Source: Apostichopus japonicus (lineage: Eukaryota > Echinodermata > Holothuroidea > Aspidochirotida > Stichopodidae). From it: a stretch of 64,000 nt of DNA. Below, one piece after another: positions 32,583 to 57,191 of this stretch (positions are counted from its first letter, which is position 1; each line of letters starts with the position of its first letter). The DNA is taken from positions 13,520,269 through 13,584,268 of the forward strand of contig NC_092572.1 in NCBI RefSeq assembly GCF_037975245.1. Direction: 5' to 3'. The notes beneath the pieces are model-generated. The model did no database searches. It was given only the letters and a program-made list of their open reading frames with translations, and was not told the DNA's origin. The translations under genes and the position numbers were made by a program.

Positions 32583-33170
32583 TAGTGGTCCATACTGATA
32601 ATATAAAAGATAAACAAGCGAATATTTTTAACAACGACATACTGCTATACTTCGGAGTGGTCACCACTCCATCGTCAGGCAATTGTACAAGATCAATTGA
32701 ATACAAGGGCTAATATACATCCGAAGACGACAAAATTGATAAGCATGAGTGAATTTTTAAACTAGGAATGTTTAGGACAACCAGCAAATTTTTAGTGAAT
32801 TTTTAAACTAGGAATGATTAGAACAACCAGCAATGAAAAGTAAATAGGGATTAGAATAGCTCCAACCCGTAGCTCGCTACGTTTCTATTTAAGTCAGCAT
32901 TTAAGTCTTTTATTAGGAGACTCTCTTTAATCTTCCTCCTGAACCACTGGGATTCATTACCAATAGCGGCACAATGGTCAACAAAAGAAGGCAGATAATG
33001 TTTGTGCGCAGTACAATGAAGGTTAATAGCGCCTTTCTGACCACCAAAAGAGCTCATCATATGTTCTTTGAATCTATCCTTAAGCCATCTATTGGTTTCT
33101 CCGACATAACAGGAATCACAGTCTGGACAGTTTATCCTATATACAACATTGTTGGCATATATATATATAT
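32480..33170 (-). mobile_element. Penelope-like element fragment: GIY-YIG endonuclease, hairpin, (AT)n end
   Basis: On the minus strand, 33165-32851 encodes NNVVYRINCPDCDSCYVGET, then RWLKDRFKEHM, and ends VASYGLELF with a stop. VYRI.C..C...YVGET is the GIY-YIG signature of PLE endonucleases, which nick target DNA for retrotransposition. This domain is open for about 100 codons. The downstream tail holds a hairpin motif (32679-32650, CTGACGA, stem ggagtgg/ccactcc, GAAG) and ends in about 40 AT units (32494-32577). The reverse transcriptase part is absent. Codon use and sequence differ from the 27480 family, so this is a second PLE lineage. Confidence 0.82.
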
Positions 33171-33176
33171 ATATTA

Positions 33177-33520
33177 GAGAAAAGCAGAGAAATAAGATGT
33201 GACTCACAATTGACAAATAAGTAGTAGTGTTTTAGGGAATATATTGGAATTTCCCTCTGGAACCTTCGTTAGCAATACATGACAGTCGAATGAAAAGTAC
33301 AACATGTAACACAATGAAAGTATGACGCTGTATAAGTGTAAGTTGCATTGAAAGAATGACAACCAAATAAACCACGACTCTACAGGAGGCGGATCAAGGA
33401 GCAAAGGACGAATTACATATGTTTTTAGAACCGAGAGTTATAAAGGGGTCCCAAGTCTTTGTTGAGGCTGATGATGTAAGACTCAATACAAAAGATCGAA
33501 TCGTTTTTTTTACGTTTACA
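33177..33520 (-). mobile_element. PLE tail fragment (27480 family), inverted
   Basis: The reverse complement matches 27840-28190, including 'gtcatactttcattgtg' and 'aattgtgagtcacatcttat'-type sequence, and the hairpin motif mutated to CTAACGA. It ends at the AT tract 33157-33176, next to another PLE fragment. Confidence 0.7.
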
Positions 33521-41132: not shown

Positions 41133-41336
41133 TTAAGTAAGTACTAAGTCCTCAAATAAATACCGAATCTGAGCTTTGACATTTGTTTTCGCCCACAGTA
41201 CGATAATCATTAGTAAGTCCTCTTTTTGTTCCAGATTGATGTCATATAACTCGATGATGTCAATCTCAGGCAACTTCAGCTGAAGCAGAAAATTCAATGG
41301 GCAGTCTGCACCGAATGACATAGCTTCAAATTTTAC
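41133..41336 (-). CDS. Terminal exon of the Ig-NACHT gene, leucine-rich
   Basis: The acceptor tttcgcag precedes VKFEAMSFGADCPLNFLLQL, then LPEIDIIELYDINLEQKEDL and a stop at 41135-41133. It enters at phase 0, matching the end of the NACHT exon. The alternating I/L pattern (EIDIIELYDINL) resembles one or two leucine-rich repeat strands, far shorter than the LRR arrays of typical NLRs. A donor inside it (gtactt near 41147) is weak, so I take it as the last exon. Confidence 0.55.
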   Translation of the reverse strand, partial: VKFEAMSFGADCPLNFLLQLKLPEIDIIELYDINLEQKEDLLMIIVLWAKTNVKAQIRYLFEDLVLT

Positions 41337-44300
41337 CTGCGAAATAGATGAGATAAGACATGAGTTCAGCCGTCTTTCTTTCTTATGTTCGTGAATCTCG
41401 AAACTGCTATCAATAAAATGATTGAAATAAGTGTTTTTCCACGTGTCATTATCGTGGTATAGCTTAGTGCATTTTATGTTATGGAATAGGCCATTTGAAG
41501 GAAAAAAAAGAGTTTAGAACGCATGTGACTAAGTATGATCAATTTTAAGAGAAAAACATTTTTCACTATGTCTTTTAAGTATGAAATAAATTTCCACTTT
41601 GAAACTGTCTGAAAAACTGCATAAGTAATAATTCATATTAAGGCGTATGTATTGGTACGAACGAGTTTTACGACGTGTGTCAAAGAGCGGTAATCGTACA
41701 AATGAATGATTAATTGGTAAGACCACGTTAGTTTGTACGGAAACATTAATACAATTTAAGAGCTAATATCGAATTTCCAGTCGCATGATGTGTAATATAT
41801 TGCATAAAGTACTGTAAATATTAAGTAAATCAATGACACTGCTTTTTATAATGACAATTGTTACTATGATTATGCCACTGAGGTATTTTCCTAGTAAAAT
41901 ATTTGTAAGTGTGTTTGCTTGATGATTATTCTGACAACAAATTGATCTATGTTTGTTATTTCTGAGTTTTTATCGGAAAGTTTTACAAACTTGCTTTATT
42001 ATTCTTAAACTGATGATACATTGAATTGCGTTCATAAATCTCCCAGATTTATATTTGAATAATTGTGAAACGTATTGCGTTTTGCATATATTTCGTTTGA
42101 GTGTTCAGAATCAATCGACAGATTACAGACAGATTAAAAAATTACCTATGTCTTATACAGTTTGCTCCAAATTAGGAATGCTATGGGCGTTTGGAGACTC
42201 GTGTTTGTGACTGGTAAAAACACGGGTTATGAAGATAGCAAAGCCGTTACTTACATTTGAGCCTAAACACTTAACAATAAAGAGTTTGAACGAATTTTGA
42301 TGATATCGCTCATCTAAGCGCACGACTTTCATGTTTGGAAGCAACGAGCACTTCTGCTGAAGAGTAAACGGTTTGACAGATTCTTCATTATTTTCCATAT
42401 CAAGAGTATCCTCATCGTTTTCCGATTCGAAGATGCAATCTGCTAACGTATTCCAGCATTCATATTTTCATAAGTATTCCAATGTTTTGTCTCTCATCTT
42501 CTTAGAAATGCCGCATACGAACCGCAATATTCGGGAGATTCTTATATTTTCGTCTGGCTGGTTGGCTTTTAATGCGCGTAAGATCTTGTCTAAAATATCT
42601 AAATCCTCTGAAACAATGTATTCCGCAATACAAACCTCTTGAATATAATCATGAGAGAACACATTGTAGTCAGATTTTGACACGCCAACTTTCTTCAACC
42701 CTTTGATAGGTTTTATGTATCCAATTGATTGAGCCATTTCTATTTCATGGGCTTCAAGACTTGCTTCGTTAAGATCAAAGTTCACAATCGATTGACTTAT
42801 ATCATAATTTAAAGATGCTTTCGCGAGTTTCATTCGTAACGGTTGTATCTCACTTAACATAGCTTCGTTACCCGGCTTCTCCAGGAACCTTCTGTCGAGG
42901 CAACTAATGACTGAAGTAACTAATGAAGACATCTTGTTGATGTTCAACTCATTGATTGCCCCATTAATTTTGAGTAACTTTGATACTACGATATGTATAA
43001 ACATGACAATAAACAACGGTGTGTCTTTAAAGTCTTTCACTAAATCATTTTGATTTAAAGTATGAATTGTTTTTTCTTTTAAGTCTGCATATATTTCATC
43101 AATTCCTTGCTTTTTTGGTTTACTTCTTGATGCATCAGTTAAATCATCGTTATGTAGTGTTTTCGTTGGTGTGATGCGTTTGTAATACTCCAGTGTTTTA
43201 CCGACGTATGTTTTAATCTCGTTTGTATTGAATCCTAAAATCTCTACTTTAACGTATGGTTGTTTGTAAATGCACTTTGACTGATCTATCTTATGTGATG
43301 TAACCCATAACCTTAAATGTGGGTATTGATTCAACATGGACTCGTTCAATAAACGTTTAATTGGAATATCACCAGGTGAGACAACATGTGTACTGCTAGT
43401 ATTTTCTTGTTGGCTAATTTCGTCTAATCCATCCAGCAGTAGATGACATTTACCTTTCAGTATAATGTCACACAGTTGTTCACGTGAGATATTCATATCT
43501 TCTGGGAAAGTTTTATGTAATTGTTCTCCAATACCGGCAGTAATGTCGACTCCTGTCAGTGGCAGGATAAAAAGTGTGTCTTTTTTCTTTTCCTTTAGTT
43601 TCTTCTTTGACCACTGACAGGCTAGATACTGACGAAGTGATGTCTTTCCATGACCAATGTCTGCAATAAACAGCGCCCTCTTTATTTGTTTAGAGACCTT
43701 TGGATCCAGCAATGATTTGCTTGTCTTGGTTTTTGTGGGGCTACTGTCATAAGTAACATTACAAATAGTTTCAGTGTAGAGTTCATCGATGAGAACCTTC
43801 TCTCCCCATGGCAGTGGTTTTATGTAGCTCATCGACTGATATCGATCTCGAAGATGATTCATCAACTTGTCCATTTGTACTTAAAACAAGAAGAGTCACA
43901 AAAGTAAAGTTTATTCTTAAGTTTCATCAAAATTATTGGGCAAAAAATAAGTGTTAAGACATTAACTTTGGTTAATAAAAATATGATAAATTTGTTTATA
44001 AGTTAATTCGTTTTTTAAAAGAGTATTTGAATTAGTCATGTAATTTCATTTACATATTACACGATTTTTGTAGCATTTTCTTAAAGGGACGATTCCCTAG
44101 TGTTGCTTGGTTTGTCTTTACATGTCAGGAGAAAATATATAGTTGTCAAGACTGAATAATACACTACATCATTACCTTCTGATAAAGGCGAAGACTGTGT
44201 AACAAGAGGTTCTGTATCACGCTGTGGAAGATCATAACATGACAGTTAAATGTTAATGATTAAAAATTGAGCTGTTGCATAAGAAATGGCGATTCGTGTA

Positions 44301-47300
44301 CTTGAATATTTAGCAACGATTCTATTGGACAAGACGCAATTACCATTTTTGGGGGATTATAATGAAAACACATATGTGATCAACACGTATATACTCTAAA
44401 AGAACTAAAATCCATCTCAATTATGCATCTGCAACAAGTTACATCGTACATTATTTGTATTGTTTAATTTTTCAAAATTAATTATGTTTTGTGTATAGTA
44501 TAATTCAACATTGTAATAAAGAATTATTCCTTAAACTCAAGGAACGCTTACGGAAGGTCTGAAATATCATAATATGAATAGTAAGCACTATTAATACTGA
44601 ACATACCAATTGAATGTCACTCTCTTGACGTTCCTTTTTGGAGTTGTCATTCCTTACTAAAACAGAAAAGTGTTTACAAAATATTTTTTAAATTGAAAGA
44701 AAACATCATATCACGAGATTCTATTTCAGAAGGTATTGATACCGTTGAGTTACGTTCGGACAATGTGCAATATATGTCATCAGTAATGCGTTGGGTCTGC
44801 TGATATTTGAATTCACTCACTATTCTAGAATGTCAAATTAGCTTTATAATAATCAGGGTACAAGTGTATGGAAATTAATGTTCGCCCAAAATTAAGATAA
44901 TATGAAAACTATACGATATAACATATGCACAACTATTAACATAACAGCAGAACAAGGATATAATTTCATTGTCTGACATGCGAATATGTTAACCTGCTGA
45001 TTAAAGCTGGTTAAAATAGAGAATTGACAGCTATGGGAAATCACTATCTCGAGGCCTTTTAACATGTAAAGGTAGCTAAAATTTCCCCCAAAATGGTCAA
45101 ACCACTAATAATCATCCGTATGGGAGTACGCAGTCAGAAAATCTAGAGAAAGCAAGCGCACTGAGTAAGTGGCAAAGCTATGAGCAGTTCTAATGAGCAC
45201 CCAAAATGAAGTATTTACATACCCCATTCATAGTTTTGGCTTGAACAATATTTTTTTTTTTTTTTCATCTTGCTAATCTTGTTGGCCGGGTATCACAATT
45301 TTCAGGTTTTTCTGTTGAGGACAGTAGTTTTTCAATTGTTATATTTGGAGTGGGTACAATTTATTTGAACGTTTCCTTGTCGGTATTTGTCATGCTGCTG
45401 TCTTGAGCCACTCTCCAGATTACTATCAGTATCGTACTTCAGTGGCTGGCCGTGCAACGATTTAAAACTTAGAACAATGAACTTTTTTTTTTAATTTCAT
45501 GGTTTTAATGACGATGAAAGTATATCCAGTTGTGTACACTGATATTGAATATGCGTATACAGGAAAGCTAGATTTTCAAATAGCTATTGACTTCTGCTAG
45601 ATAGTTTGGAGCACATCAATAGATGTCAGAAATAGGAATTACAATTTTTTATTTATGATTTGCAAATAATACATCATTACCTTCCGATAATTCCGATGGA
45701 TGTGCAAGAAGGGGTTTTGTTACATCCTGTGGACGCTAATAATATTAAAATTTTAAAATTTTAACGATTACAATTGACATGTCGCATGAAAAACGACGAT
45801 TCGTGTACTTTAATATATAGCAATACAAGTCAGATTCATGCGACGAGACGAAATTACCATCGGGGAATATAAATGAAACAATTATGTAATCAACACGTTG
45901 CTACGCTGGAAGAGCCAAGAACTATCTCAATATAAATTTGTAACAAGTTAAATCTGGCATCATTTGTATTGTTAAATTTATCCACAATTGTTCCGTAACT
46001 ATGTTTGTGAATATTATATATAATTCAAACATTGTAAGAAAGCAATATTTGCATAACCCAAGGAACCCTTATAGAAAATCTGATATTAATATGAATATTC
46101 GGTACTATTTATACTAAACATACCAATTCGGTGCCACTCTCTTGGTGTTCCTTTGTGGAGTTGTCATTCCTTACTAAAACAGAAAAGTGTTTCCAAAATA
46201 CATTTCTTTTAAATTGAAAGAAAACATCAATTCATGATATTCCCCTCAGAAGGTATTAATACTGTTATTGGATATGCGTATACAGGGAAGCAAGATTTTC
46301 AAATAGCTATTGACTTCTGCTTGAGATTTTGGAGCCCATCAATATATGTCAGAAATTGGAATTACTCTTTTTTATTTATGATGTGCAAATAATAAACTTC
46401 AGAAAGGAACTGAATATGGACATTGAGTATTAATGACAACATATTCACATGTTGCATAAAAAAAAAAACATTACGCGGCATTTCCATTCCATAAAATGTG
46501 TCTCACCGTGGAATTAACATTAACAATAACTAACATTCGCGCTCAAAAGACCTAAATTATTAAACAAATAAATCGCATGTACATATATTGACGTCTTTCT
46601 TACCTTTTTTACATACAGTAAAACAAACAGTAACCACCAAACATATCATTACCGCTATTCCGACGGAGACTGCAACAATTATTACCAATCTAAAACCATC
46701 GAGAAATACAGGTACTTCTTCATCCTTTACTGTGGAATCAGTGTGTGTGTCGGTGGTTTGAATGCAAGGCGCTACGAATAAATACATAAAAAAGTTTGAG
46801 TTTTCAGCGTCTCCTTATTAATATCTCATTGTATACATTCATGCTTTGCCACTGAAGTGAAAAAAATTATAATGCATTTCAATTTGTTAATAAACCTACT
46901 GCAAAATGAACAACACACTGTCTTAAAGCCCTGTTAGTTTCGGTGGCACTTGATATGCAAACTTAGATTATCTTTTTCCAACCATTTCCAACCAGTTCTC
47001 CGCCTGGCTATACTTTATGATTGTATTATCGATCTCTTATATGCAGTACGTTGATAGCACATCCCTCCATCCTTGCTATTTGTAAATTGTTTTACTTTAA
47101 TGTGTATACAAAAATGTATATTAAAAGTGCTTAATATAATAACAAGTCTGCCATGGTATTATGCATAAACATAGTAAACATATTTTACAATTATGAAACA
47201 ATGGTGTGAACAAAACTATAACCTAAAAGACTATAAGATTTTGGATGGTTTTGTTAAATTATGATATAATGAAGGTTACCTGAATTTAGATCCATAGAAC

Positions 47301-49605
47301 TGTCTTTGATGCCGAATATGTTACTTCCAATAACAGTGCATCTCACTGTCAGTTTTGAACCACAAGTATCCATAGAAACTTCCTTGTAAGCAATAGTATC
47401 AAACGTATCCGTATCTGTATTATGCCTGACGGTAACATTGAAGAGGTCTTCGTTTTCAGTGATTAAGCTGACGTTTACTTGAGGACGAGCACCAAGGACA
47501 CTGCAGGAAACATTGTGGTTGATCTTTGCGTAAGAGCTACAGTAGCAGGAATCACTAAGGGAAACGACCAGACATTCTTGTTGAGGCTTAACTACGAATA
47601 AAAGTTAAGTAGCAATTTAACGCTAAACAAATCTTGTCAGCAAGTATTTGCAAACTTTTGAAATATAAGGTAAAAGAAACGGCATGTATTTTATGTTGCA
47701 TTTAAAAATGCCGGCACGGGGAGACTTGAAAGCATTGTTTAAAAAAAACTTAATCGGTTTATATCAAACTAACGTTACATTTGAAACATATTTTAATTTT
47801 CAAGACTCATATCAGTAATAATTTGCTCTTGTTTATTATAAGCTTATACATTGTTAACTTGGCACGAAATGTATACTTGCTACACATTAAACTACATGGT
47901 GAGTTGTATTGTTTAGCATAATGTGTATTTTTTAGACTACTTTCTTTACATGGTATTATACTTACTTGCAAGTTCTAAACGAACAAAAGCTTCTTCATAC
48001 GATGCATCTTTAACACTGACGATCTTGTACAAACCGCATCGCTCTTCTATTACGCCTTTGATCAACAAAGCTCCTGTTCCTGTAATGTCATAATTCCCTT
48101 CCGCGGGTTTAAGGACTACTTTTTCTCCGTTTTCAAGTTTTACCAGGGGACTGCCAAACATATTCTTCTCGTTGTACCAGTATACGTTACTACCATTTTC
48201 AACATGACAATCAATGGCGAAATTCTGGCCGAGTGTAGCATACTCGTTCTTGTTGCAATGGAGTCCGTAAACTTATAAAAAATATATATGCAAATGATTG
48301 TAACTATATTGTATACTATATTAGATATAATATATAATACATATATCATACGTAATACGATTTTTTACAAGTGATTAATCATAGTGGTTCAAACTTTCCA
48401 TGTGTTTCATATATTTTATTTGCAAGGGTTCACCGCATGTGTCGAACTTAACGAAGTGTATGCATATGAACGCTTTGTATTCCATACGTGTGCTTATCGT
48501 AGAGCAAAGACAGCCAGGGAAACTTGATGTGTTGTACAATTATTACAACGAATCAATATCATGTTTCTTAGTTCCGTAAAATGTTCAGATAAAGTTCCGT
48601 GTTACACTAAACGTATTGATCATAAGCTGTGTAAAACGATGCTGATTTCGGCTCCAAATGTTGAGGCTTGGTATCAGTTTGTATGTGACAACACCCCGCC
48701 CAACTACACTCCATGAATGTGTGCTCAAGCACATTACTTCGATAACGCATCATATGTAATCGTTGGGCATCTGCTTATTAACTAAAATGTATGGGAGCTA
48801 CCCTATCAGTATCCGTTTGCAATTTCACGCGCACTCCCACTTCCCCAGGAATCGATCCTTTTAATTTCTTGAACAATATGCCTGGGATATTTGTAAGCAG
48901 AGTACCTGGCTGAAAATTATTTCTTAAAATAGTTTATCATGCTAACTTCTGTATGTGTGTATGTGGTTAACAAGAGGCAACATTGTTATGGTTTTCTTTG
49001 ACCTGGGCGTGTTCTCTTCCTGCTGTGTGTGATTTACATTTTACTCAGGTGCGCTTCTCACTTCCAAATTTGCTTCCACCCAAACTGCTGGCTGCCAGAT
49101 CGACCAGCCTCACCCTTATCACCCCATATCTGAAAGGACTGGTGCAGCTGACGTACATTGCTGCCTTAAATATAGAAAGGTAACAGTCTGAAAATTACCT
49201 GAGACAAACTTGATATCATCGATACAAAATACACAATTGCTATTTTTAAAAATAGAGTTACTGTGAGAGAGCGTGCAAAGCAGTACTTTTCAGATTTTGA
49301 ACACGAAACAATGCGTTTAAGTCGTCAATATGTTTTCTCTTCTACGTTTTCGTAATTGTTCAATACCAACGTAAATTTTGCATGTAGCGAAAAGCACCAG
49401 TATTGTGCCTAATTATCACAAGTGAAAAAAATTCGACTAGCATGAAAAAAATATTTGTGGTATGCATCGAGGTAACATATGCTGACATTGTTGTCAGGCA
49501 TAATGGGTTGTTAGTGTAACATATCAATAATAATATAATAAACTTACCTAAACCGTAAGACATCAATACCGCTAGACTCAAAACAACTTCCGCTTTTTTC
49601 AACAT
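41133..49605 (-). CDS. Transmembrane Ig-Ig-NACHT receptor-like gene, ten predicted exons
   Basis: Minus-strand exons: 49605-49548, 48271-47966, 47591-47280, 46771-46604, 46173-46124, 45726-45681, 44656-44607, 44221-44176, 43879-42255, 41336-41133. All have GT/AG borders and joining phases, totalling 954 codons plus stop. Order: signal peptide (1-19), first Ig (20-121), second Ig (122-225), stalk, transmembrane helix about 254-278 followed by CKK, a short hydrophilic linker made of two repeated exon pairs (282-345), NACHT NTPase (Walker A ADIGHGKT at 418-425, Walker B LLLDGLDEI at 492-500), and a leucine-rich end. NACHT proteins are oligomerising signal switches, usually soluble. Here the predicted topology places extracellular Ig domains outside and NACHT inside the cell, suggesting a surface receptor with NLR-type signalling. 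An in-frame TGA at 42470-42468 would stop translation after 815 residues, so this allele may be broken. The 5-prime non-coding part is not defined. Confidence 0.75.
42255..43879 (-). CDS. NACHT domain exon with an in-frame TGA
   Basis: A single 1625-nt exon (acceptor ttttaag, donor gtaagt) enters at phase 1 and ends at phase 0. It encodes KRALFIADIGHGKTSLRQYL (Walker A), HLLLDGLDEISQQ (Walker B) and a long helical region typical of the post-NACHT winged-helix part. The frame ends at TGA 42470-42468. It then continues open for 71 more codons (KYECWNTLADCIFESENDED to IVKCLGSN) up to a good splice donor. The first glycine of the usual GxxxxGK[ST] P-loop is alanine. No LRR array is encoded in this exon. 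Confidence 0.85.
44176..46173 (-). repeat. Tandem duplication of a two-exon linker cassette
   Basis: The exon pair 46173-46124 (RNDNSTKEHQESGTEL) plus 45726-45681 (DVTKPLLAHPSELSE) is repeated as 44656-44607 (RNDNSKKERQESDIQL) plus 44221-44176 (RDTEPLVTQSSPLSE). Exon sizes are identical (50 and 46 nt), phases are identical (1 to 0, then 0 to 1), and splice-site context matches (cagaaaagtg..., gtatgt; gtaatgatg). The cassette adds 32 residues without changing frame, so copies can accumulate. A third, exon-less remnant of the intron part lies at 46260-46470 (compare 45540-45790). Confidence 0.85.
46604..46771 (-). CDS. Transmembrane exon of the Ig-NACHT gene
   Basis: Phase 1-1 exon, 56 codons. 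A Thr/Asp-rich stalk (CIQTTDTHTDSTVKDEEVP) is followed by about 25 hydrophobic residues (LVIIVAVSVGIAVMICLV and on) and a CKKG stop-transfer signal. The basic residues on the C-terminal side fit a type I orientation with the NACHT domain in the cytoplasm. Confidence 0.85.
47280..47591 (-). CDS. Second Ig domain exon of the Ig-NACHT gene
   Basis: Phase 1-1 exon, 104 codons. Cysteines at NHNVSCSVLGARPQV (strand B) and SKLTVRCTVIGSN (strand F) fit a C2/I-type Ig fold. Extra cysteines lie in the N-terminal part (DSCYCSSY). Several Asn-x-Ser/Thr sites suggest glycosylation. Confidence 0.75.
47966..48271 (-). CDS. First Ig domain exon of the Ig-NACHT gene
   Basis: Phase 1-1 exon, 102 codons. It starts VYGLHCNKNEYATLGQNFAI, continues DCHVENGSNVYWYNEKNMF (strand B Cys and strand C Trp) and ends with GVIEERCGLYKIVSV. 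The usual strand-F motif G-x-Y-x-C reads GLYKI, so the canonical second cysteine is missing. The cysteine just before that glycine and the one in GLHC may form an alternative disulfide. Confidence 0.7.
49548..49605 (-). CDS. Signal-peptide exon of the Ig-NACHT gene
   Basis: ATG at 49605 in context aaacaATGt. The exon encodes MLKKAEVVLSLAVLMSYGL (basic start, hydrophobic core) and ends at a consensus donor (taggtaagt), phase 1, fitting the next Ig exon. Confidence 0.75.
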
Positions 49606-52640: not shown

Positions 52641-54998
52641 ATGGATACTGCTTCTATTCCTTTTATTCTCTTCGTTTGTCTTGTATCTAGAGGTATGTAT
52701 TCAGTCGCAAATATTTTATCTCCATTTATCTGAATAAGTGTAATAACATATATTTAAGCCACATGATATTGACTTTTTGTTTGTTTCATAGGTTATGTCT
52801 CAACAACTAATTCGGCTTTATGTTTCAAAAGCGATAACGCTTCTGATATTTTGAATTCATGCGTTGTTGAAATCGGAGATGATTTGTGTCTGATATGTCC
52901 TGTGCATATATCAAACACGCCAACTATCATGTGGTGGAGAAACGAAAACTTAATTTACGCCGGTGTAAATAAACTTAGCGAAGACGAAACAATACTTCAA
53001 AACACTTGTCAACACGTGCTTTCATCGATTCAGTTAAAGAATGTTTCATTTGCTAAATTCAACGATGTGTATGAATGTCGCAGAAGTGATCAAGACTTAG
53101 TGTTAATTATGTACAAGGTATCAGTAATAGGTAAGATAACATTTTCATAGCATATATTTATATCTTCAGTTGCAGTGTTTGTGAACTATAGCTTGATAAA
53201 TCTATGTTTTAAATGTTGAACCTCAGTAGTATAATTTCATCGATAGGTATTTCTCGTAAATTGAACAATTAACTAAACACCTTTACCGTCTTATTTTATG
53301 CAGTTTTTGCAAAGCGATTACCTAATGGACAGCAGCACATTAGGAGCTCCAGAATTGGTAATATTTAAAAGTAATTTGCAATGGTAATTTGTTTCTTACG
53401 AAAACTGATATTATATTTACATGACAAATTCTTACAACGAAGAAAACATTCAGAAATAAATGGAAACAAAATATATGTAAAAGGATGAATAAGAAATGTA
53501 TGCCACTGCATACATAGTAAACATGCAATGTTTATTTTCAACTCTTAAATAATAGTTCCAGGTTATCTATCTTTGACAAACTTAGATATTTTGCATCTAA
53601 TATTCTGTTCAACCTTCCCATGTTAAGCTAAGCCACTTTTGGCCATTGTGAAATATGAAAATAATCCGTTGTACGAAGAAACTGAATCACTGGAATGCAG
53701 AGCAGATGGAATTTTGCCGCCTTTGACTTTAACTTGGTTAGTAAATGAAAATATACAAAGGAAGGAGCTATTTAATGAAACTGTTGACCATAGAGTGGTG
53801 TCTACATACAGCTTCAACCAGGATGGAAATTCAAAAACAATTGCATGTCAAGTTAATGGTTCTCATATCAAACCCGCCAGTGTGACTTACAACTACCAAA
53901 TATCAACTTTGGGTAAGATTTTTTCTAGAAACATATTTAAAAAGGCAGCGAATATGTTTTTTTGTAAAGCAAATACGATATTGGTGATTTCTCGTGACTA
54001 AAAACTTAACGTCAAAAAACATGTTCCGTAGTGGTTCTAAAATAAATATGTACTAGAATATGTTATTGTGTGAAAAAATAAGGAGTACATCGTTTGAGTT
54101 TGAATACTGTGACAAAACACGTGGTGAATATTTTCTTTGGGTAATGACAAAATTGCTTCAATTTTGCTTTATCATTTAATACTTATCAATACGCTTTAAA
54201 AATATGCTTTACTTTTTATTTTTTATAATAAAGAAAGAAATTTTTACTTAATAAAAATATAACATTTAAACTTGAAGGAGAAGTACGTTATGTCGGACCC
54301 AGTAAACTTCAGTTAGAAGAAAAAAAAGACAGACAATTGTGCTTACTTAACCAATTTGCTGTCCAGGCGCTTTGTAAGTTTGCCAACTTCAGTCTTTCCT
54401 TTTATGATAATGTATACTTTCCGTTACTAATACCTGTTAAAGTGTATAGCACCTTTCAATATTCAATGATAAATGTGGGAGTATTGCAGTGAGGTAAGTC
54501 CTTACTCTTACCAATATTTTACCTTTACGGCCTCTTAGCAACAAAACACAGGCTGTGAAAGATGTTTTAAACTAGTTTCATTATTTATGTATATATCAAA
54601 TTGATGCATAACATTCCATCTGAGGTTAGTGATCAATGAGCGAAGAACAAACGTCCATGTATGTTTCATCTCTGAAAACATTGATCTGATTCTTCCGAAG
54701 GTATAGCATAATGACATTGTGTTGGAATACCTCAATAAATCACCGACCACCATTCCAAACAATTTTTGGGAAAATATCAACGCTCTTAGAAAATGTTAGC
54801 CAGGTAAGTCAATTCAGATTTGTATCATGCATGTAATCACTTAATGTCATGATTTTCTGAGACACGCTCTTGAAACATCCAGAGTTCTCAACAAAACTGT
54901 CAACTAATGTTAGATCTCATTTCTTTTTAATTATGCAGGAAGAACAAGTTCTAAGATGTAAAGCATCGGACTACTACTCGACTTTGGAAATATCGTAA
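52641..54998 (+). CDS. Ig-domain receptor tyrosine kinase-like gene, incomplete
   Basis: Exon 1, 52641-52692, encodes a signal peptide (MDTASIPFILFVCLVSR). Exon 2, 52792-53130, encodes a V-like Ig (LCLICPVHISNTPTIMWWRN, later FNDVYECRRS). Exon 3, 53628-53912, encodes a C2-like Ig (ESLECRADGILPPLTLTWLV, later KTIACQVNGSH). All junctions are phase 1. Exon 54707-54803 encodes MTLCWNTSINHRPPFQTI and 54939-54998 encodes EEQVLRCKASDYYSTLEIS and a stop: the kinase C-terminus, as in copy 1. A possible juxtamembrane or N-lobe exon is 54276-54368 (VRYVGPSKLQLEEKKDRQL), with a weak acceptor. I found no transmembrane exon and none for most of the kinase in 53913-54706, so the locus is deleted, or these are two fragments of a once longer gene. 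Confidence 0.6.
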
Positions 54999-55735: not shown

Positions 55736-56843
55736 AATCTTGATTAACCCTGGTAGGTCTATCATCTCAGGTAAAGGGACCCCCTCTGAGAAGATATTCA
55801 TTGTATGTGGACCATTTCATCAAAACTTCTACTTCCTCAGGTTAGCTCTTACATCCATGACAGTCCAGATTTCCTCAGGAAACATGAAGATATCAAGAAC
55901 CAAATCCCCAGCACAGCCATCATCGGTACTTTCGACGTCACTTCTCTTTACACTAACATCCCTCATGCTGAAGGTAGTGCAGCCCTTTTCAAGAAGGTCC
56001 ACCCTTGTCCACCCATCTCTGACATTAAAGTTCTCATGCAACAGGTTCTCACCAAAAAAAAAACTTCACGTTCATAGACAAGCATTACCTTCAAAGACAC
56101 GGGACTGCCATAGGTACCAGGATGGCTCCTTGCTTTGCTTGCCTGTTTATGAAGAACGCATGCTCAGTACAGCTCCCTGCCGTCCACTAATCTGGTGGCG
56201 CTACATCGATTACTTCTTCTTCGTTTGGACCAGTGATGAGGATAGCCTGCTCACCTTCATCAATCACATCAATTCTTTCCACAGCACCATCAAATTCACC
56301 TCTGAGTACTCTCATCAACAGGTTAACTTTTTCGATGTGATTCTTTGCAAGGAACACGGTTCTCTCTCTAAAGACTTATACAACAAGCCCGAAGACACAC
56401 ACCAGTATCTCCATTCTTAAAGCTGCCATCCCCATCACTGCAAGTCTGGAATTGCCTACAGTCGAGCACTTCGTCTTCGTCGCATTTGCTTTAACAATTC
56501 CTCTTTCATTCGCCATACAGATGCTTTGGAAAAACACCTTACTGCCAGGGGCCATAGTGCCAGAAGGGTGCGTGAAGCCATTCAGAGAGTCCGCTCCGTT
56601 TCCAGATCATCCACTTTGGCAGTGAAGGGCAAAAATAGACAAGATTGCAACAACAAGCTCCCCCTGGTTGTTACTTTCCACCCAAATCTTCCTCCTCTTC
56701 AGTAAATTACCTCTAACAACCACAACTTTCTCCTCACTTCAGATAGACTCCAACGAGCTGTCCCTGAAAACCCACCATCGCCTACGAGATGCATCATCTG
56801 CAGCCACCAAATTGTTGAAGCCAATTCCATCACCAACCACAGC

Positions 56844-57191
56844 ATGCAACACACACACAAGACTAAGGGTCTCATCACTTGCACAACCACTAATGTCATA
56901 TATCTGATCTCTAGTAGAGTTTGCGGCATCCAGTATGTTGGCGAAACCAAAACCACCCTCAAAAAGCGATTCTATGGTCACAGATCTACAGTCTACACCA
57001 TGAAAACTGAGACCCCAGTTGGAGAACACTTTGACCTTCCCAACCATACCATTAACGACATGTCCCTATATAGGATTGAATCCTTAAGTAGCTGCCCTGA
57101 CCTAGTACGAATCAGCAGAGAGAGGCTGTGGATGCAACGCCTTCGCACCATTCAACCTCATGGGCTCAACATTCAGGAAGTACATGACTAA
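56844..57191 (+). CDS. GIY-YIG endonuclease domain of the PLE
   Basis: Open for 115 codons: TTTNVIYLISSRVCGIQYVG, ETKTTLKKRFYGH, and RISRERLWMQRLRTIQPHGL, a C-terminal pattern typical of PLE GIY-YIG endonucleases. GIY appears as VIYLI and YIG as QYVG, with the usual downstream R and E residues. The domain is intact although the RT upstream is broken, which suggests a recent insertion or chance preservation. Confidence 0.8.
   Translation: MQHTHKTKGLITCTTTNVIYLISSRVCGIQYVGETKTTLKKRFYGHRSTVYTMKTETPVGEHFDLPNHTINDMSLYRIESLSSCPDLVRISRERLWMQRLRTIQPHGLNIQEVHD

What the first reader, a model, noticed from the sequence alone, without database searches (positions are those of the whole stretch)
41133..49605. 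A predicted surface receptor joining two Ig domains, a transmembrane helix and an intracellular NACHT NTPase
Ten exons with GT/AG borders and fully compatible phases link a signal peptide, two phase-1 Ig exons, a TM exon and a NACHT exon with Walker A and B motifs. Known NACHT proteins (NLRs) are mostly cytosolic. A type I membrane Ig receptor carrying its own NACHT switch would be an unusual recognition-to-signalling fusion. Whether it has been described cannot be checked here.
Basis: partly seen in the sequence, partly recalled or inferred. Interest (0 to 1): 0.92.

Follow-up and report, generated by a model that had tools for sequence, protein, structure and literature searches.

The report
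Sea cucumber Ig-membrane-NACHT receptor gene copy
This is one copy, probably disabled in the sequenced animal, of a large sea cucumber gene family that fuses antibody-like outer domains to an inner NACHT switch; the design is already published, but neighbouring copies seem to have swapped outer and inner halves.

Summary
The exon model is right: minus-strand exons at 49605-41133 encode signal peptide, V-type Ig, C2-type Ig, transmembrane helix, four short cytoplasmic exons, NACHT exon and last exon, with matching phases and GT/AG borders. It is one gene: the 12 closest NACHT loci (this one included) all have both Ig exons upstream, same strand and order. But the frame is not open: a TGA at 42468-42470 cuts the NACHT exon, while 8 of 9 close siblings read through, so this copy is probably a recent pseudogene or truncated allele. 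And the architecture is known: the genome matches Apostichopus japonicus, where the Ig-TM-NACHT receptors AjNLRC4 and AjNLR-new are published as surface receptors for Vibrio (PMC8699970, PMC13133943). The window gene is a distant sibling of AjNLRC4. New next door: three adjacent genes share one ectodomain type (80-89% identity) but carry three NACHT types (24-37%), one of them the window's type (76%). Sensor and switch halves seem to have been exchanged behind the TM exon.

The parts
49548..49605 (-). Exon 1: start codon and signal-peptide-like leader (MLKKAEVVLSLAVLMSYGL)
   Evidence: ATG and GTAAGT donor; sibling L071 has a similar leader, 67% over 18 aa. Signal peptide judged by eye; no predictor was run.
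47966..48271 (-). Exon 2: V-type Ig domain 1, phase 1-1
   Evidence: AG/GT borders; profile of 10 copies hits Ig structures in the PDB, best E 5e-4; 29.6% to AjNLRC4 first Ig, E 9e-9 in an 8-sequence blastp, but no significant tblastn match in that locus
47280..47591 (-). Exon 3: C2-type Ig domain 2, phase 1-1
   Evidence: AG/GT borders; Pfam C2-set_2 E 0.0047, below gathering score; no meaningful PDB profile hit; all-beta low-confidence model
46604..46771 (-). Exon 4: stalk and transmembrane helix followed by KK
   Evidence: Kyte-Doolittle peak 3.25 at aa 254-272; conserved in siblings
46124..46173 (-). Exon 5: short cytoplasmic exon
   Evidence: AG/GT borders; 94% in L071
45681..45735 (-). 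Exon 6: short cytoplasmic exon
   Evidence: AG/GT borders; 83% in L071
44607..44656 (-). Exon 7: tandem duplicate of exon 5
   Evidence: 119-nt repeat, 87% alike, spacing 1517 nt; borders
44176..44221 (-). Exon 8: tandem duplicate of exon 6
   Evidence: 83-nt repeat, 73% alike, spacing 1505 nt; borders
42255..43879 (-). Exon 9: NACHT exon; ends at a GTAAGT donor, phase 0
   Evidence: PF05729; profile hits NLRP3 and NLRC4 chains among others; donor position kept in L071 as GTGAGT
43641..43664 (-). Walker A (ADIGHGKT)
   Evidence: GxGK in 14 of 14 aligned copies; the first glycine of the classical motif is absent in all 14
43419..43442 (-). Walker B (LLLDGLDE)
42468..42470 (-). In-frame TGA stop codon inside exon 9, 213 nt before the exon end
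   Evidence: the frames of L032-L035 and L037-L040 run through this place
41133..41336 (-). Exon 10: last coding exon with TAA
   Evidence: TCGCAG acceptor, phase 0; similar in L032, L034 and L071; no Pfam family in the frame holding it (query 41136-41513)

Best explanation
The window holds one copy of a large sea cucumber (Apostichopus japonicus) family of type I membrane receptors: signal peptide, V-type Ig, C2-type Ig, one transmembrane helix, short tail, NACHT switch. Likely mechanism of intact members: the outer V-type Ig domain contacts microbial surface molecules; clustering at the coelomocyte surface brings the inner NACHT modules together; nucleotide-driven assembly recruits effectors (beta-actin and Arp2/3 for phagocytosis, caspase-1 for lytic death, as published for AjNLRC4). 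Shown here: exon structure, co-duplication of Ig and NACHT exons, domain homologies, the same domain order as AjNLRC4. Inferred: topology, ligand, oligomerisation. The copy in the window has a premature stop 213 nt before an exon junction. It is most likely a recent pseudogene or null allele whose mRNA would be degraded, or else gives a receptor lacking the last ~140 residues. Neighbouring members indicate that Ig-TM halves and NACHT halves have been exchanged between genes.
For: Exon borders and phases. NACHT by Pfam and PDB profile; Ig1 by PDB profile. Both Ig exons upstream, same strand and order, in 12 of the 12 closest NACHT loci, the window's own included; 28 of 31 hits of a related Ig2 query upstream of a NACHT locus; TM and tail exons conserved. 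Purifying selection in 36 pairs among nine copies per domain: median dN/dS 0.26 (Ig1), 0.19 (Ig2), 0.49 (NACHT) (L036, L070 and more distant copies not used). Genome 671.58 Mb in 35 contigs, C16 of 46.04 Mb, against 671.6 Mb, 34 scaffolds and a longest chromosome of 46.02 Mb in PMC10344927. AjNLRC4 EX-F primer: one genome match, 1 mismatch, on C16; EX-R, sought only in that locus, 1 mismatch; the locus has Ig, TM-like and NACHT exons. Function of AjNLRC4 from PMC8699970 and PMC11932488. Stop.
Against: No transcript was available. Ig2 is not proven as an Ig fold. Kinship of the Ig exons with AjNLRC4's is weak: blastp in an 8-sequence database gives 9e-9 (Ig1) and 1e-4 (Ig2), but tblastn with composition correction finds nothing below 0.35 in that locus. 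The AjNLRC4 IN primers (10 or more mismatches) and siRNA target (4 mismatches) do not match the C16 locus. The window's NACHT lies in the other half of the NACHT tree from AjNLRC4, so function may differ. All 14 aligned NACHTs lack the first P-loop glycine. A published relative (AjNLR-new) is claimed to have the opposite topology. 40 of 73 NACHT loci showed no Ig hit upstream with the three queries used, and 1 of 31 Ig2 hits lies downstream of a NACHT locus.
Confidence: 0.8

Rival explanations
1. Two separate genes lie in tandem: an Ig-TM receptor and an independent NACHT gene. The apparent fusion is a chance of compatible phases.
For: No transcript data; exons 4 and 9 are 2.7 kb apart; phase-1 introns are common in Ig genes (recalled).
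Against: 12 of the 12 closest NACHT loci (window included) keep both Ig exons upstream in the same order; short linking exons 5 and 6 are conserved; receptors with the same order are published from this species.
Confidence: 0.03
2. The stop is a sequencing or assembly error, or a polymorphism, and most animals carry an open gene here.
For: One haplotype seen; the stretch after the stop still looks like a coding frame (dN/dS 0.22 against L071, on 11 synonymous and 12 non-synonymous differences); donor and last exon are intact.
Against: The assembly is from HiFi reads (PMC10344927 passages); two other members among the 12 closest also carry frame damage (L036 with L065, and L078), so decay is not rare in the family.
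Confidence: 0.3
3. The truncated copy is kept as a working short receptor (decoy or regulator) with Ig-Ig-TM and the NACHT core but no C-terminal part.
For: All domains up to the stop are intact; pre-stop dN/dS against L071 is 0.62, below 1.
Against: The stop is 213 nt before a junction, a position that triggers decay in vertebrates (recalled rule, untested here); none of the nine closest siblings shares this stop.
Confidence: 0.12
4. The NACHT faces outside and the Ig domains inside, as claimed for AjNLR-new.
For: PMC13133943 reports this topology for a relative.
Against: Leader-like exon 1, one TM followed by KK, 10 cysteines and 4 N-glycosylation motifs on the Ig side (reading these as topology signs is general knowledge). 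The NACHT side also has 5 such motifs, so the motifs alone decide little.
Confidence: 0.06

Closest known systems
AjNLRC4 of Apostichopus japonicus (MN607598; PMC8699970, PMC11932488)
   Same: Same species; Ig domains, TM, intracellular NACHT; no CARD or LRR (per the papers); Ig exons weakly similar
   Different: On C16, not C12; four Ig exons (V-C2-V-C2 by my reading) against two; NACHT in another deep clade with a GEPGFGKS P-loop; open frame
AjNLR-new of A. japonicus (PIK48001.1; PMC13133943)
   Same: Combination of Ig, TM and NACHT in the same species
   Different: 1197 aa; published as having two TM domains and an extracellular NACHT; its sequence was not compared here
Chiridota heheva NLRs with Ig V-set (PMC8913654, passages read)
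   Same: NACHT with Ig V-set in another sea cucumber
   Different: [quoted passage not shown] the word transmembrane does not occur in the main text
Zebrafish large NLR family (PMC4852459, search listing only)
   Same: Large NACHT family of nearly 400; the listing counts the terms gene conversion and exon shuffling
   Different: Cytosolic NLRs (recalled), not membrane receptors

Membership tests
AjNLRC4-type Ig-TM-NACHT receptor | N-terminal Ig domains | tested here: met
   Ig1 by profile against PDB; Ig2 weaker; direct similarity to AjNLRC4 Ig exons weak
AjNLRC4-type Ig-TM-NACHT receptor | Transmembrane helix between Ig and NACHT | tested here: met
   Hydropathy 3.25; conserved exon
AjNLRC4-type Ig-TM-NACHT receptor | NACHT after the TM in the same gene | tested here: met
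   Frame and phases, co-duplication in 12 of 12 loci including the window; the transcript itself could not be tested
AjNLRC4-type Ig-TM-NACHT receptor | No CARD or LRR domain | tested here: met
   Pfam found none in exons 1-9 up to the stop or in the frame holding exon 10; the 71 codons behind the stop were not scanned
AjNLRC4-type Ig-TM-NACHT receptor | Open full-length frame | tested here: not met
   TGA at 42468-42470; open in 8 of 9 siblings. The copy is therefore filed as a damaged member, not as a working one.
AjNLRC4-type Ig-TM-NACHT receptor | Close NACHT kinship with AjNLRC4 | tested here: not met
   Opposite half of a 61-row tree, midpoint root, several long branches; so a distant sibling, not an orthologue
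AjNLRC4-type Ig-TM-NACHT receptor | Surface localisation, binding to Vibrio, actin or caspase binding | not testable with these tools
   Wet-lab features, published for AjNLRC4
Classical NLR | NACHT NTPase | tested here: met
   PF05729 44.1 bits; 20 PDB chains at E<=0.01, mostly NLRP3 and NLRC4
Classical NLR | C-terminal leucine-rich repeats | tested here: not met
   No LRR family in exon 9 up to the stop or in the frame holding exon 10; the 71 codons between were not scanned
Classical NLR | Full P-loop GxxxxGK[ST] | tested here: not met
   GxGK kept, first glycine missing in 14 of 14 rows

The most novel reading that the evidence does not exclude
Sea cucumbers hold a germline modular receptor system. 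Interchangeable Ig-Ig-TM sensor halves and NACHT switch halves are reassorted between tandem genes by recombination behind the TM exon, so that new sensor-switch pairings keep arising across more than 70 NACHT loci; damaged copies such as the one in the window may serve as donors.
Probability: 0.35. Interest if true: 0.65.

Novelty: new member of a known kind. Interest (0 to 1): 0.42.

Why it matters
The architecture itself is known, but in the papers I found it rests on two receptors studied by one group. This analysis places them beside a large clustered family with one exon plan. It shows a case in which the outer and inner halves of neighbouring genes have been exchanged, which gives a concrete sequence basis for asking whether invertebrate NLRs diversify recognition by swapping sensors. 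It also warns that the copy in this window should not be used as a full-length model.

Tried and rejected
Rejected: chance gene fusion. Rejected: an alternative donor before the stop, because the GT in RILRF|VCG falls where most siblings read FICG or FFCG. Rejected: the window gene being AjNLRC4 itself (EX-F primer matches only C16; tree). Tried without result: PDB profile for Ig2; fold searches (not accepted); a NACHT structure (not accepted); AjNLRC4-IN primers and siRNA target in L073 (10 or more and 4 mismatches), cause not followed; a TM downstream of the plus-strand Ig gene. Exon against intron divergence with L071 gave no clean contrast (introns 68-95%, exons 74-98% identical), so pairwise divergence alone does not prove coding. 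Searches that could have shown the half-swap in print: (listing only, 12 of 53 papers shown); no title or abstract start shown announces it, which is weak evidence of absence.
Full report
WHAT IS THERE. The minus strand from 49605 to 41133 carries ten exons whose internal borders are all AG/GT and whose phases join: leader (E1), two Ig exons bounded by phase-1 introns (E2, E3), TM exon (E4), two pairs of short cytoplasmic exons (E5-E6 and a tandem duplicate E7-E8, repeats at about 1.5 kb spacing), a 1625-nt NACHT exon (E9) and a last exon (E10). E5-E6 and E7-E8 keep the frame whether both pairs, either pair or none is included; transcripts are needed to tell which is used.

DOMAINS. NACHT is clear: PF05729 44.1 bits, E 2.5e-11; a 14-row profile finds 20 PDB chains at E<=0.01, most of them NLRP3 and NLRC4, best 4.5e-7. 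The P-loop keeps GxGK in 14 of 14 rows but lacks the first glycine in all 14; Walker B in the window is LLLDGLDE. Ig1 alone is below Pfam's cut-off (E 0.048); its 10-row profile hits 146 PDB sequences at E<=1, and the 60 shown look to be Ig-superfamily proteins led by CD2 and CEACAMs. Ig2 is the weakest part: C2-set_2 E 0.0047, only 2 chance-like PDB matches, and a six-strand all-beta model of low confidence. The TM peak is 3.25 on the Kyte-Doolittle scale. The leader was judged by eye.

ONE GENE, NOT TWO. A genome search with the window's NACHT gave 87 rows; I dropped second pieces of the same genes and kept 73 loci. The first 12, the window's own among them, all have both an Ig1 and an Ig2 hit upstream on the same strand, in the same order. 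Of 16 Ig2 hits, 14 are upstream and same-strand within 12 kb and 2 have no NACHT near; of 83 Ig1 hits, 23 are upstream and 60 have none near; no hit of these two searches is arranged otherwise. The share of the genome lying in such places is about 0.07%. A related Ig2 (L070) gave 31 hits: 28 upstream, 2 with nothing near, 1 downstream of a NACHT locus. In all, 33 of 73 NACHT loci have an Ig hit upstream with these three queries (limit 12.5 kb); 40 do not, which may be divergence or absence. A gene of the 7.5-8.1 Mb array (NACHT 33% identical to the window's; L074) shows a V-set exon (5.8e-8), a C2/C1-like exon below cut-off (0.0055) and a TM-like stretch read by eye. A C7 gene from the AjNLRC4 half of the tree (L075) shows a C2-type stretch with stops and a TM-like stretch of hydropathy 3.64.

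THE STOP. E9 contains TGA at 42468-42470. Of the nine closest siblings (L032-L040), eight have open frames of 553-583 aa and one (L036) has its own stop elsewhere. After the TGA the window's frame stays open for 71 codons to a donor, and pairwise dN/dS there against L071 is 0.22 on few differences, so the change looks recent. It lies 213 nt before the junction, which by the vertebrate rule (recalled) invites mRNA decay. Damage is not rare in the family: L036 with L065 (stops in NACHT and TM exon of one gene) and L078 (frame break in Ig1) are two more among the 12 closest.

SPECIES AND PRIOR ART. The genome (671.58 Mb, 35 contigs, C16 of 46.04 Mb) fits the A. japonicus assembly (671.6 Mb, 34 scaffolds, longest 46.02 Mb; PMC10344927, passages). 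AjNLRC4 was described in 2021 as a membrane receptor with Ig-like and Ig domains, TM and NACHT that binds V. splendidus and acts through beta-actin (PMC8699970: abstract, passages and part of the Discussion), in 2025 as part of a caspase-1 complex (PMC11932488: abstract and passages), and AjNLR-new in 2026 (PMC13133943: abstract and two sections). The AjNLRC4 EX-F primer has one match in the genome, on C16 with 1 mismatch; EX-R, sought only in that locus, fits with 1 mismatch; and the LRTD motif reported for its Ig domain is in an Ig exon there. That locus reads V-C2-V-C2, TM-like, NACHT by my inspection (one of the four Ig exons has no Pfam hit and two are below cut-off). Against this, the IN primers and the siRNA target do not fit the locus (10 or more and 4 mismatches). 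Ig-bearing NLRs also occur in Chiridota heheva (PMC8913654, passages), and NLR genes were noted as expanded and clustered in the 2017 genome paper (PMC5638244, passages). So the kind is known. The window gene is a separate member: its NACHT falls in the other half of a 61-row tree (midpoint root, several long branches), and its Ig exons are only weakly similar to AjNLRC4's (blastp among 8 sequences 9e-9 and 1e-4; tblastn against the locus nothing below 0.35).

THE NEW POINT. Five genes in a row on C12 were compared: 13.433 Mb (A), 13.462 (B), 13.493 (C), 13.563 (D, the window) and 13.590 (E). Ectodomains of A, B and C are alike (Ig2 82-84% aa in the three pairs; Ig1 80% A-C and 87-89% A-B), those of D and E are alike (Ig2 90%, Ig1 75-78%), and A, B and C against D are 34-41%. 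NACHT halves of C, D and E are alike (76-85%), while A-B is 24%, A-C 32%, B-C 37%, A-D 33% and B-D 38%. So one ectodomain type sits on three NACHT types, and one NACHT type carries two ectodomain types. In gene C the Ig and TM side is 80-83% identical in DNA to A, with no hit to D or E, while the tail-NACHT side is 77-85% identical to D and E, with no hit to A and only a 40-nt hit to B. The switch lies between C12:13495899 and 13497200, behind the TM exon and before the second pair of tail exons. Ig1 may have a separate history too: window against 18-Mb copies dS is 0.69-1.15 for Ig1 but 0.14-0.35 for Ig2 and 0.22-0.31 for NACHT. A misjoin of the assembly is unlikely, because both halves of C differ by 15-23% in DNA from the copies compared, but it was not tested with reads.

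HOW IT PROBABLY WORKS. Shown: exon plan, domain order, co-duplication. From published work on AjNLRC4: surface location, microbe binding by Ig, actin binding by the intracellular side. Inferred: ligand-driven clustering and nucleotide-dependent switching in this clade, with caution because the P-loop is degenerate at its first glycine. The window copy itself probably contributes little or no full receptor in this haplotype.

VERDICT. Observation mostly right, with an overlooked stop; interpretation right in architecture, wrong in novelty. New member of a known kind; the half-swap among neighbours is the part worth following.

Noticed in passing
C12:13433139-13499408 outside the window (loci L034, L041, L042, L070, L076, L077, L078): Three adjacent family members share one ectodomain type but carry three different NACHT halves; one of them has the window's NACHT type. 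Breakpoint behind the TM exon.
   Followed up: partly
window 52642-53913, + strand: A head-to-head neighbour gene with a leader-like exon (by eye) and two Ig-like exons (Ig_3 2.8e-4 and C1-set 0.0034, both below cut-off); no TM-like stretch above 2.5 found on the + strand downstream.
   Followed up: partly
window 44165-46394: Tandem duplication of the two short juxtamembrane exons (about 1.5 kb spacing) plus a further 134-nt repeat at 723 nt spacing.
   Followed up: partly
window 32854-33231 (-) and 56706-57188 (+): GIY-YIG fragments near the Pfam cut-off, likely remains of Penelope-like retroelements (name recalled).
   Followed up: no
L036 and L065 (gene at C12:18.285 Mb); L078: Other damaged copies: stops in NACHT and TM exon of one gene, a frame break in Ig1 of another.
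   Followed up: partly
L073 (C16:4493800-4503700): AjNLRC4 locus: EX primers match with 1 mismatch each, but IN primers (10 or more mismatches) and siRNA target (4 mismatches) do not.
   Followed up: partly
L066 (C12:18190019): Ig2 exon lies in an unusually long open frame of 978 aa; cause unknown.
   Followed up: no
A4 alignment: All 14 aligned NACHTs of this clade lack the first glycine of the P-loop, unlike AjNLRC4.
   Followed up: no
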